From NCBI GenBank assembly GCA_034440575.1, contig JAOTOL010001662.1:3933501-3997500 (forward strand): 64,000 nucleotides of DNA, in the 5' to 3' direction. Both the position numbers and the translations under genes were made by a program. The stretch comes from Imbricaverruca yamaguchii (lineage: Eukaryota; Arthropoda; Thecostraca; Neoverrucidae). The notes below the pieces were generated by a model that saw nothing but the letters and a program-made list of their open reading frames with translations, searched no databases and was not told where the DNA came from. Of the stretch, positions 30,481-35,439 are shown piece after piece (the stretch's first letter is position 1; each line of letters starts with the position of its first letter).

Positions 30481-30692
30481 TTTGCCCTTTTTTGAAAGAA
30501 ATTTAATCCGAGTTGTTGCTGGGGTAGCTTTAAGAACCAGGGTTCTATTCCTAAGCAGAGCTTGTTGCGCGAACCCTATCCCCACCACCCGATCCATGAA
30601 TCCCAGTTTAACGGCAGAATTTTGATCGAAAGTTTAACGTGCACCGACACGGTCGCACGGTAGCTCGTCCCCCGGCCTTATCGGGCCGACAG

Positions 30693-31172
30693 CGTATCAT
30701 AACCTCCACAGTTCATAACCTCCACAGGTCACAACCTCCACAAATTCAACACATCGCAGCGGTCGTAACCTCCACAGGTCATAACCTCCACAGGTCATAA
30801 CCTCCACAAGTACGCATCGGTCATAACCTCCACAGGTCGTAACCTCCACAAGCCCGCAGCGGTCATAACCTCCACAGGTCGTAACCTCCACAACTCCGAA
30901 GCGGTCATAACCTCCACAGGTCATAACCTCCACAGGTCGTAATCCCCACAGGTTGCAACCTCCACAAGTACGAAGCGGTCATAACCTCCACAACTCAGCA
31001 GCGGTCGTAACCTCCACAGGTTGCAACCTCCACAGATTCAAGAACTTTTTTAATTTTCTAGAAGCATCACTTCAGATAGCTATCGCTAGGTAGCAGCACG
31101 GTCTACGTATTACACTAATGAGATTGAATACTGAATCATAGGTAACAATATTTATCGCCAGATGGCAGGATG
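30693..31172 (+). repeat. Left inverted terminus of foldback element
   Basis: Tandem (C/G)(A/G)TAACCTCCACAGGT units run to about 31036, with longer variants inserting AGTACGCATCGG-like spacers. A unique segment to about 31172 then matches the right terminus, ending near GATGGCAGGATG. Confidence 0.85.
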
Positions 31173-32559
31173 ATACAATTGAGTACGTGGTCTTTGCGTG
31201 CAGCTGTCCTATTGTTCGAGAGCTCGGTAGCCCGCGCATCGACGCGTGGGAAAGTAATGCGTTGCGCAGTGGCCGATGATCGTATAACATTCACACGATT
31301 TTCGCCTGCAATGCGTCGACGCGTGGGAAAATAATGCGACACGCAGTGGCGGATGATGGCAAGACATTTGCATGTTATCCGTCTGCAATATGCCATGCAA
31401 TGACCAGGCCATGAAATGCAACGATGCCTTTTCATGGCCTGGTCAGGCGTAGGAACGTCCTCAAAAGTGAGTGGGCCAGGGCGAACAGCAGGGACGCATC
31501 AAGTAATTTCGCAAAATACCATGGTTGAGCACTTTTGGGTCGATAACCCGATAATTTTAATTGTAAACACACAACTTTTACCACTAGGATGGGGACCGTT
31601 AAAGAACATCCGTTGTTCACTGATGTTCATGGGGAGAAAGAATAGACCGCCAGTCCAACTTATCCCGTAAACGAACATTTTGAAATGGCCAAAAGCTGCA
31701 GGGGGTCATTATGAGTTCACCGATCTATGCTTTTGCACAATTCAGATTGTTGTTCATTGAGTTGAGTTTTTCCCCTTAGACATTCTTCACACGTTCATAT
31801 TTTCATGACATGTTACTTGAATGTGAAGGTGAGAAAGGGTTTGATTTGATTAAGATTGCCAGATATTGCCATACTTAGTACTTATTGGCCCACAGACGTT
31901 TCTAAGGCAGTGTTCACCTTACAAGTTTGCACTGGCTGCTAGTAAGAACGAAACCTACTTGCTGGCCGATGAAGAAATTATCATGATTATTGTTGGAGAT
32001 GATGAGAAAAGGAAAGACGGGTGATCGCTGGTTGAAGATGCTTTGATCCGGTTTGTGGGAGGCCATGATTTGCAAGCTGACAGAATGGGGAAAAGAAAAG
32101 CTCTATAAATAATAACATTTGGTATTGTGTTCGTCCTCAGGGCCTCATCAGTCACCTCAAACATTTGTGCAGTGCACATCGTGCACTTTATAATATTTGT
32201 CACTTGAAAGGAAATGCTACAACTGCATCACGTAACACCCGGCTGAAGCGGAATGAAAGCGCATATGTTGAGGACCAACAAAGCAGTGCAAAACAGCTGA
32301 TAGGTGACAACACACGACACCTCATAAAGTCATAACGTGTTCAGACTTAGGGCCGCAAGGGCCCATCCTGAATTCACTTCGATGACTCTCCTTCCCACGT
32401 TTTCTAGTGGCTAAGAAATCCGGATAACCGCTTAGCTTTGACGCACCTCATTTCTGATTAAATAACAACGCTTCCAGATTGGGTACCGAACTGAGAGTCC
32501 AGTTAGGTGTTCTTTTCCTTTCCGATTTTCTTTGTCTTCGGATGTGTTTTAAGGCACCA

Positions 32560-33170
32560 GCAATTTTTTGCTTGGGGCTCGACACGTTGCGAGCAATTTA
32601 TGCGATACCGGATTTTTAAACAAAAGTAAAGTTTTGTTACTTATTTTTGTGTACCGACGATAATTTGTAAGCATCGGTGCGTTTTCGTGGGCCCCGCAGT
32701 GTTCATTTAGTGCACTGTCTTTTCATTCCTTTTCTAGGACCATGTCGATTTTTTAGGGACCTAGCCTGTTTTTGAGGCCCTATGTTGTATCAAACCCCGC
32801 TGTGCTTTGAGGGACCGTTGTGTCTTGATTTTTAGCTCCGGTGTGTATACTTAGAGCAGCAGAATGTCTTAAGGCAATGCCGTTTTATTCCAGACTCGGA
32901 AAGCTTTGAAGCGCTCGGTGCATTTTCGTACTCAAGTTATGCTCTTTGAGTCCCGCTGTGGTTTTTCCTCATGTTTGTGGGACTTCGGCACAATATTAAG
33001 GGTCCGGTATAATTTCTTTGGATCCGGTCTCGACGTTTCTGGCCCAGTGGCGTGGTTCCGGGAGAATCGGACGTCACTTTTCTGGGCTTGACAGTTTTTA
33101 GTGACTGATTCTGAATTATGTAAAGTCCCAGCCAAGGCCTGATTTTTCAGGCCCTCGGCGACATTTCTGT
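32560..33170 (+). repeat. Decayed ~30-bp array inside the foldback element
   Basis: Words such as GCGTTTTCGTGGGCCCCGC, GATTTTTTAGGGACC and CTGTTTTTGAGGCCC repeat about every 30 bp. It is the same family as the arrays at 30190 and 35440. Its presence inside the foldback element shows the family was carried by, or spread into, different mobile units. Confidence 0.65.
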
Positions 33171-34751
33171 ATTTTTATGTCCAACATAACTATAAGACAA
33201 GATTAAGACAGGAGAAATCTTAAATTCAGCTGCAATTTCCAACCGCAAAATCAAATGATGGTATACAAAAATAGCCCAAAAAAATCACTTCATCCCATAA
33301 ATTTTAACAAGAGATACAGTGTCGGTGCATTCTGTAGAACTTTACCACTGTTTAACTGATTAAGCCGAGGTGCTTTAGATGTACGCAAATACAATCGTAC
33401 ATGATGAGTAATACATGAGTAATTCTTTCCTTGAGGATTTGGAACGGTGGTCTAGCCTGGTGGTCGCTTACCTACAAAAAGCAGTTGCTTCGTCCAGCAA
33501 GCGCTATTGCGACATAAAAAATTCCAACACCGTGCAAGTAAAAGAGAGCCAACTCGTAATGAACCTGGAGTGCACAAGAGGCAGGAGGCTATAATGAACT
33601 ATGGGTAACCTGTTCTCGCAGGTTAATGCACATTTTCACCAGCGACACCGTGACGGTTTCGCGATGCGAACAATCATCGGATTTTAATCGAAAGAAAAAA
33701 TGCTTTATCGGAGGAAATTCTGGTCCAACAAACATTGGACTGCCAGCGGATTTTAAAGCAAAACACCCACAGAAGCATACAATTATAGCGGAAACACTAC
33801 AGCGGATAGGTTTGTACTCAAGATGAAGTTTCCATTTAGACAAAATGTGTTTCCACGGGAGCTGTGCATCCCATAATAAAAAATGAAGAAAATATGTACT
33901 TTTGAATGATCTACATTCGTCCAGTACACTCTACAATTACCTACGTTATTTGAATATAATTGTTAATCTGAAAGAAAAGTTTTCAACAAAAGTTTAAAAA
34001 GTTGCACAGAAGATGCGACATGGGGGCTTTCTCCGCCGGTATTTTAGGATATTTGGATATTAATATCAATATTTGCTATGGCAAAATGTCCTTTCCGAGA
34101 CGCGAACTCCGAATCACCGGCTTGAATTACATGCTTATAGTATTATAATGGGCATCGCAACCACTCAGAAGGTAAGAAAATACCGTCAAATCACCCTACT
34201 TCACCGACTCAGCAGAAATCACAATTTTTGGAAGAAAAAAATGGGGAAAAATTCCCAAAACTGTGAGAATTCCTAAGTGGCCCACGACCCCTGATCCCAT
34301 ATTCAGCCAAAAAAAATCGGTCAGCGATTTTCCAAACCAAACTCCGAATCACCCACTCCTGGCAAAAGCGCCAAGTCGACTCCTAATCACCCACTTCGGC
34401 TTCCATAACTTTTCATCAGCGACACCGTGACTGGTTCGCGACGTGAACCGTCCACTTTTGCGCCACAGACGCTGCGCTTTCTCCGTTCCTTCCCAAGACA
34501 GCTGATCAATGGCGTCACCAGGGTACGACTAGTCGGCATATTCAGGGCGGACAATGCAAATATTGCGCGATAATCACAATGTATTCAACATTTTAGGTAG
34601 CCATCAAATCTGATACAAACAGGTCTGAGCAGGGTGTTCGTTCTCTGCATCCGCCACTGTGCCGCATATCAGCTTCCCACGGGGCGACGGCCGGTTCCCG
34701 ACGTCTGAAAAGTTAACAATGTGCACACACAGAAAAAGCGTATTCAACGAC

Positions 34752-35254
34752 ACATCCTGCCATCTAGTGAGAAATATTGTTATCTATGCTTCAACGTTCA
34801 ATCGCATGACATTCATTCAATATCCGTTGCTATAATACCTAGACCGTGCTGCTACCTAGCGATAGCTATCTGAAGTGATGCTTCTCGAAAATTAAAAAAA
34901 AGTTCTTGAATCTGTGGAGGTTTCAACCTGTGGAGGTTACGACCGCTGCTGAGTTGTGGAGGTTATGACCGCTTCGTACTTGTGGAGGTTGCAACCTGTG
35001 GGGATTACGACCTGTGGAGGTTATGACCTGTGGATGTTATGACCGCTTCGGAGTTGTGGAGGTTACGACCTGTGGAGGTTACGACCTGTGGAGGTTATGA
35101 CCGCTGCGGACTTGTGGAGGTTACGACCTGTGGAGGTTATGACCGCTGCGGACTTGTGGAGGTTATGACCTGTGGAGGTTACGACCGCTGCGATGTGTTG
35201 AATTTGTGGAGGTTTTGACCTGTGGAGGTTACGACCTGTGGAGGTTATGATACG
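34752..35254 (-). repeat. Right inverted terminus of foldback element
   Basis: The unique segment 34752-34915 (CATCCTGCCATCTAG to TTCTTGAATC) is followed by TGTGGAGGTTATGACC-type tandem units to 35254. By eye the unique part agrees with the left arm at roughly four of five bases, better near GCTACCTAGCGATAGCTATC. Confidence 0.85.
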
Positions 35255-35269
35255 TCTCCATCGGGCCAG

Positions 35270-35398
35270 CTGCCAACTGACACTCCCGGCCGGGGGCTAA
35301 ATGCCAGCGCGCGAAGCGACTCCAACCCTGTGTTGCCAGGACAGGGGAGACCAGTGCAGACCAGCGCTCTAACAACTGAGCTACCGAGGTGGTAAATG
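35270..35398 (-). mobile_element. tRNA-derived SINE head, reverse strand
   Basis: On the minus strand a block reads CTCGGTAGCTCAGTTGTTAG then AGCGCTGGTCTG, like the 5' half of a tRNA (A box complement at 35373-35383). A B-box-like GGTTGGAGTCG has its complement at 35317-35327. The A-B spacing is about 45 bp and the anticodon arm does not close, so this is a SINE or tRNA pseudogene, not a functional tRNA. It begins directly beyond the right foldback terminus. Confidence 0.65.
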
Positions 35399-35439
35399 GC
35401 AAATGGCATACCACTTTGATATGCCACTGCGGCTACTGA

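What the first reader, a model, noticed from the sequence alone, without database searches (positions are those of the whole stretch)
30693..35254. Large foldback element with termini made of 16-bp tandem repeats
Both ends carry 14-20 copies of CATAACCTCCACAGGT-type repeats in opposite orientation. Each is joined to a unique inner block that is also inverted. This two-layer terminus is typical of FB/Galileo-like foldback elements, which are rarely described outside a few insects and other groups. The interior carries no recognised transposase, so either a novel protein mobilises it or it is a non-autonomous member.
Basis: partly seen in the sequence, partly recalled or inferred. Interest (0 to 1): 0.85.

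Follow-up and report, generated by a model that had tools for sequence, protein, structure and literature searches.

The report
Giant non-autonomous foldback jumping element
This is a shortened copy of a recently spread family of very large jumping DNA elements whose ends are long inverted stacks of a short repeat, and which probably depends on a cutting enzyme made elsewhere in the genome.

Summary
The element spans 30688-35259 (4572 bp). Each end carries 16 ACCTCCACA-type units in opposite orientation, followed by an inverted inner block. An exact 8-bp duplication, ATCGGGCC, flanks it, and related repeats elsewhere hold that site once, without the element. It is a real insertion.

The source genome (767 Mb) holds 188 exact right-end 24-mers. 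Of 20 other copies read at both ends, 11 have exact 8-bp duplications, two match at 7 of 8 and seven do not match. Ten of the 20 are 13.2-13.6 kb long; the window copy lacks about 8.8 kb of that form. Sixteen copies differ by 1.2% on average over 2 kb, so the family spread recently.

One 13.4-kb copy, scanned in six frames, shows no recognised domain above cut-off and no open frame longer than shuffles give, so it looks non-autonomous. The plan (stacked-repeat arms, unequal 6-bp tips, 8-bp duplication) is closest to Mutator-type foldbacks such as Tm1; Galileo has 7-bp duplications. MULE and P transposases exist in the genome, but none was linked to a copy. hAT and Merlin searches did not complete. 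Superfamily unresolved.

The parts
30680..30687 (.). left target-site duplication ATCGGGCC
   Evidence: the site is present once in three aligned element-free relatives
30688..30693 (+). left tip GACAGC, not matched by the right tip (right tip read inward: GGAGAC)
   Evidence: the GACAGC tip stands in the left ends of the copies listed (one variant, L069, reads GACATT)
30694..31036 (+). left repeat array, 16 ACCTCCACA-type units
31037..31172 (+). left inner block, inverted counterpart of the right inner block
31173..34752 (.). interior of the window copy, no recognised coding capacity
   Evidence: open frames listed; domain scan done on the full-length copy
33182..33183 (.). junction of the internal deletion of about 8.8 kb relative to the 13.3-kb form
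34753..34909 (-). right inner block
34910..35253 (-). right repeat array, 16 ACCTCCACA-type units on the minus strand
35254..35259 (+). right tip GTCTCC (GGAGAC read inward)
35260..35267 (.). right target-site duplication ATCGGGCC

Best explanation
A non-autonomous foldback DNA transposon. Shown: exact ends, an 8-bp target duplication, element-free relatives of the target, dispersed near-identical copies, and a common 13.3-kb form of which this copy lacks about 8.8 kb. Inferred: a DDE transposase made by another element binds the stacked units in both arms (multiple binding sites), cuts at the tips and inserts the element through 8-bp staggered cuts; copy number then rises by gap repair or replication-timed transposition. 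The internal deletion would come from interrupted gap repair, before or after insertion. Superfamily of the transposase, my split: Mutator/MULE of the Tm1-Phantom kind about 45%, P about 25%, hAT about 15%, other 15%.
For: 8-bp duplication in the window; 11 of 20 other two-ended copies exact, 2 more at 7 of 8. Joined flanks match continuously across the junction in 40 of 40 scored places (of 3211 candidates) at 87-90%, and three aligned ones hold ATCGGGCC once. 188 exact right ends, control 0. Ten of 20 copies are 13.24-13.59 kb; pieces of several copies align at about 97-99% to the C1272 copy over their held lengths. Mean K2P 0.0122 over 120 pairs of 16 copies. No Pfam domain over cut-off in six frames of the C1272 copy, while the same stop-masked method finds a MULE domain in a positive control; longest open frames are not above Markov shuffles (50, 78, 97 and 83 of 200 shuffles reach them, four pieces). 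Unequal tips outside the inverted repeat, stacked short units and 8-10 bp duplications are described for Tm1, which has a MULE transposase partner (passages of PMC3169594).
Against: No partner transposase was linked to these ends. Seven of 20 two-ended copies have no matching duplication. Target sites lean to a G-T-Y-Y-R-R-A-C pattern, which fits P or hAT at least as well as MULE; Tm1 passages report no target consensus. Only one full-length copy was scanned for domains, in three pieces, so a strongly diverged or many-exon transposase, or one broken in that copy only, could be missed.
Confidence: 0.75

Rival explanations
1. Galileo/P-type foldback: mobilised by a P-superfamily (THAP) transposase.
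For: 8-bp duplications as in P elements (passages of PMC7776569); palindrome-like target lean GTYYRRAC; 33 P-type domain matches in the genome, four of them (C618, C940, C1063, C1353) with the same score and 459-aa open frames; Galileo has long internally repetitive arms (passages of PMC3573991).
Against: Galileo has 7-bp duplications. Comparing with the 100 right ends listed (contigs up to C1144 only), just one P-match contig, C739, bears a right end, about 40 kb away. No P domain in the scanned full-length copy.
Confidence: 0.25
2. hAT-driven non-autonomous element.
For: 8-bp duplication; T at position 2 and A at position 7 of the target enriched (0.90 against 0.49 expected of 2, 0 of 2000 draws). 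The hAT consensus nTnnnnAn is recalled; papers holding the string appear in the listing, not read.
Against: hAT tips are usually equal and short-armed (recalled); the tips here differ. The search for hAT transposases did not complete.
Confidence: 0.15
3. An autonomous element with an unrecognised transposase or a many-exon gene in the 13.3-kb interior.
For: The 13.3-kb form is uniform and common (10 of 20) and very young, as expected of a self-moving master.
Against: No domain over cut-off in six frames; open frames at chance length; the interior carries simple repeats and 67-bp tandem units.
Confidence: 0.1
4. Assembly artefact or plain segmental duplication.
For: Seven of 20 copies lack matching duplications, and some contigs share one flank but not the other (C804 and C815), so some joins of near-identical copies may be wrong.
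Against: Exact duplications in the window and 11 of 20 copies; element-free target sites; diverse flanks (39 distinct left flanks).
Confidence: 0.03

Closest known systems
Tm1, Mutator/Foldback family of root-knot nematodes (PMC3169594; passages read)
   Same: Composite arms of a variable number of short tandem units (about 14 bp there), an extra conserved motif at the inner end, unequal 7-bp tips outside the inverted repeat, 8-10 bp duplications, many copies without a transposase, some copies without duplications.
   Different: Tm1 units and tips are different in sequence; duplications mostly 9 bp; a MULE-encoding member is known; Tm1 is described as senescent, while this family is young; this family has a 13.3-kb form.
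Galileo, P superfamily, Drosophila (PMC3573991; passages read)
   Same: Long internally repetitive inverted arms; deletion derivatives; copies with non-matching flanks, read there as chimeras.
   Different: 7-bp duplications; P-type transposase inside complete copies; tandem unit about 210 bp rather than 16 bp.
Tetris, Drosophila virilis foldback (PMC4079207; passages read)
   Same: Foldback arms with tandem repeats, no coding capacity, no autonomous partner found, 8-10 bp duplications; its authors suggest Mutator.
   Different: About 220-bp units; only three structurally complete copies reported.
Rehavkus (outgroup or member of MULEs; passages of PMC6446971)
   Same: MULE-like element with a minisatellite near an end; TIRs of 26-400 bp.
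   Different: 9-bp duplications; minisatellite before the 3' end only; encodes a transposase with PHD finger.

Membership tests
Foldback transposons (structural class) | long inverted ends built of short tandem units plus inner inverted domain | tested here: met
Foldback transposons (structural class) | mobile: target duplication and element-free sites | tested here: met
   11 of 20 other copies exact
Mutator/MULE (Tm1-like) | 8-11 bp target duplication (PMC6446971) | tested here: met
   8 bp
Mutator/MULE (Tm1-like) | unequal short tips outside the inverted repeat (Tm1) | tested here: met
   GACAGC against GGAGAC; PMC3169594 passages
Mutator/MULE (Tm1-like) | MULE transposase inside an element with these ends | tested here: inconclusive
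   none in the C1272 copy; 51 MULE matches in the genome; 2 of the 30 MULE loci fetched have a related array nearby, but the MULE exon lies on the outer side of it
Galileo | 7-bp target duplication | tested here: not met
   8 bp
P superfamily | 8-bp target duplication | tested here: met
P superfamily | P-type transposase inside an element with these ends | tested here: inconclusive
   none in the C1272 copy; 33 matches in the genome, none near a listed right end on contigs up to C1144 (one search lists 100 of 188)
hAT | hAT transposase with these ends | not tested
   search unanswered
Merlin | Merlin transposase with these ends | not tested
   search unanswered
Drosophila FB/NOF | 9-bp target duplication (recalled) | tested here: not met
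   8 bp
Rehavkus | 9-bp duplication and minisatellite before the 3' end only (PMC6446971) | tested here: not met
   8 bp and arrays at both ends

The most novel reading that the evidence does not exclude
A giant foldback element that multiplies as a uniform 13.3-kb non-coding unit, with stacked binding sites in its arms letting it outcompete its own, much shorter, helper element. It would be an unusually large young parasite of a parasite, and its near-identical copies would be exchanging ends across the genome, as the seven copies without matching duplications suggest.
Probability: 0.3. Interest if true: 0.6.

Novelty: new member of a known kind. Interest (0 to 1): 0.42.

Why it matters
Foldback elements arise in several superfamilies and are linked to chromosome rearrangement in flies. 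A young, uniform, 13-kb family with at least 188 exact right ends makes it possible to ask how non-coding elements this large are mobilised, and whether stacked repeat units in the arms are what attracts the enzyme.

Tried and rejected
Tc1/mariner reading (TA duplication): my first reading of the ends; dropped when GACAGCGTA proved to belong to the element in other copies. MULE partner at L082/L083: two of the 30 MULE loci fetched carry a related array (13 units each, one mismatch allowed), but array orientation and its inner boundary put the interior on the side of a baculovirus-F-like envelope fragment (PF12259, E 3.4e-6) and the MULE exon outside; the two loci share most of this arrangement (96% over 1559 bp), so they are not independent. 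Positional check of MULE and P matches against right ends was made by eye and covers only contigs up to C1144, since one search lists 100 of 188 places; the nearest MULE match is about 10 kb outside a copy on C861. Idea that all the youngest copies lack duplications (note): wrong, since of the four nearly identical ones (C1201, C1272, C538, C804) C1201 has TTTTCGAA at both ends. Swap test: the right flank 8-mer of C538 equals the left flank 8-mer of C1237, but 201 bases of C1237 at the expected right end showed no terminus (L108), so exchange is not shown. Viral contigs: 0 exact matches to a two-unit pattern. Rfam: no match in the window or in L010, L030, L032. Similarity of the element to the rest of the window: none reported. 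Organism: one protein search with a serpin-like frame returned a single unnamed relative; the organism stays unidentified. Copies left out of the 20: those with only one end read (for instance C1078, C1374, C1302, C1250, C1237), C861 (left-end pattern not found in L057) and C1425 (left end at the contig start).

Full report
What is there. The window lies in a 767-Mb genome of 1430 contigs. Between 30688 and 35259 stands an element of 4572 bp. Its left end reads GACAGCGTATCATAACC and its right end, read inward, GGAGACGTATCATAACC. The two tips differ in four of the first six bases and then agree. Each arm holds 16 ACCTCCACA-type units spaced 16, 26, 32 or 34 bp. Inner blocks follow that are also inverted, 97% over 67 nt and 84% over 55 nt.

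It is an insertion. An exact 8-bp direct repeat, ATCGGGCC, flanks it. With the flanks joined and one copy of the repeat kept, a 320-base query matched the genome continuously across the junction in 40 of 40 scored places (3211 candidates) at 87-90%. Three of these, aligned, show GGCCTTATCGGGCCAGCTGCC without interruption. The element therefore sits in a member of a high-copy repeat. By eye the right part of that repeat recalls a tRNA gene, but ARAGORN found no tRNA in the window.

The family. The right-end 24-mer occurs 188 times exactly (82 and 106 by strand; reversed control 0). The count for the left end did not complete. I could read both ends of 20 further copies. Eleven have identical 8-bp duplications, two match at 7 of 8, and seven match at 0-3 of 8. 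Lengths run from 7.2 to 21.0 kb, with ten of 20 between 13,242 and 13,593 bp. One long copy, C1011, contains a 2.8-kb insert with 86% inverted ends of its own. The window copy follows the common form for about 2.49 kb, then jumps to its last 2.1 kb. The jump, at 33182/33183, removes about 8.8 kb.

Age. Over about 2 kb inside the left arm, 16 copies (15 and the window's) differ by a mean K2P of 0.0122, at most 0.0235 (120 pairs). Three copies equal the majority sequence, one differs by a single base, and the window copy differs at 9 of 1992 sites. This is a recent spread. One pair on C1275 (L028), lying head to head about 280 bp apart, is older (90-96%).

Coding capacity. The C1272 copy (13,361 bp) was scanned in six frames, in three pieces, with X at each stop. 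Five families appeared at E 0.17 to 0.74, all below their cut-offs, none a transposase. As a control, the same treatment of L082 still shows a MULE domain at E 3.9e-9. The longest open frames of four pieces are reached by 50, 78, 97 and 83 of 200 Markov shuffles; simple repeats at L010:4551-5300 were left out. Domains across piece borders, and genes broken in this copy alone, could be missed.

Search for a helper. PF10551 gave 51 MULE matches. Of the 30 loci fetched, two (L082, L083) carry an array related to the arms (83% over 271 bp). Its orientation puts the MULE exon outside the array and an envelope-like fragment inside, and the two loci are near-duplicates. PF21788 gave 33 P-type matches, four of them with 459-aa open frames and equal scores. 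Set by eye against the 100 right ends that one search lists (contigs up to C1144), no MULE or P match lies inside a copy. The nearest is a MULE match about 10 kb outside the C861 copy. hAT and Merlin searches did not complete.

Target choice. In 39 distinct left flanks, information rises in the last eight to ten bases, with a lean to G-T-Y-Y-R-R-A-C (mean 4.59 of 8 matches against 3.00 in draws from the same flanks, 0 of 2000 draws as high). The motif was chosen after looking, so the figure overstates its strength. Full palindromic symmetry is not above chance (332 of 2000 draws reach it). The lean fits P or hAT at least as well as MULE.

How it most likely works. The arms act as stacked binding sites for a transposase made elsewhere. 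For Galileo, tandem units in the arms are reported to contain secondary transposase binding sites (passages of PMC3573991 and PMC4079207). The enzyme cuts at the unequal tips and inserts with an 8-bp stagger. The stagger and the insertion are shown; the enzyme, the binding and the cutting are inferred. The unequal tips outside the inverted repeat, the stacked short units and the 8-10 bp duplications match the description of Tm1, a Mutator-type foldback (PMC3169594, passages), more closely than that of Galileo. I put MULE first, at about 45%, without calling it a member.

Copies without matching duplications. Seven of 20 have none. C804 and C815 share a right flank but not a left one, and the C538 right 8-mer equals the C1237 left 8-mer. 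This may be exchange between copies, as proposed for Galileo chimeras, or wrong joins between near-identical 13-kb repeats. Three of the four nearly identical copies lack duplications and one (C1201) has them. The data do not decide.

Novelty. Foldbacks without a known helper are known (Tetris). The paper searches made for foldback elements (listings, with passages read in six papers) did not bring up a non-coding foldback of 13 kb; this is a limited search of an open-licence library. I file it as a new member of a known kind, of unresolved superfamily and unusual size.

Noticed in passing
L082:97-1779 and L083: A baculovirus-F-like envelope fragment, an array related to the foldback arms and a MULE transposase exon stand side by side; the two loci are near-duplicates.
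   Followed up: partly
G000 contigs C618, C940, C1063, C1353 (and C1379): P-type transposase matches with equal scores; 459-aa open frames in the first four and 343 aa in C1379, perhaps a young P-like family. Flanks could not be fetched.
   Followed up: no
L028:4608-6000: Two foldback copies lie head to head with about 280 bp between their left ends, at lower identity than the rest.
   Followed up: partly
L011:1454-4248: A nested 2.8-kb insert with 87-bp, 86% identical inverted ends inside a foldback copy.
   Followed up: partly
window:30528-30687 and 35260-35427: High-copy repeat that received the insertion (3211 first-look candidates); tRNA-like by eye, but ARAGORN and Rfam gave nothing in the window.
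   Followed up: partly
window:1-64000: Very dense minisatellites: 101 tandem-repeat rows in 64 kb, overlapping rows included.
   Followed up: no
window:59504-60091 (-): Open frame whose one reported relative (72% over 35% of the query) bears the serpin domain PF00079.
   Followed up: no
L030:2607-2876: Tandem units of about 67 bp inside the 13.3-kb interior.
   Followed up: no
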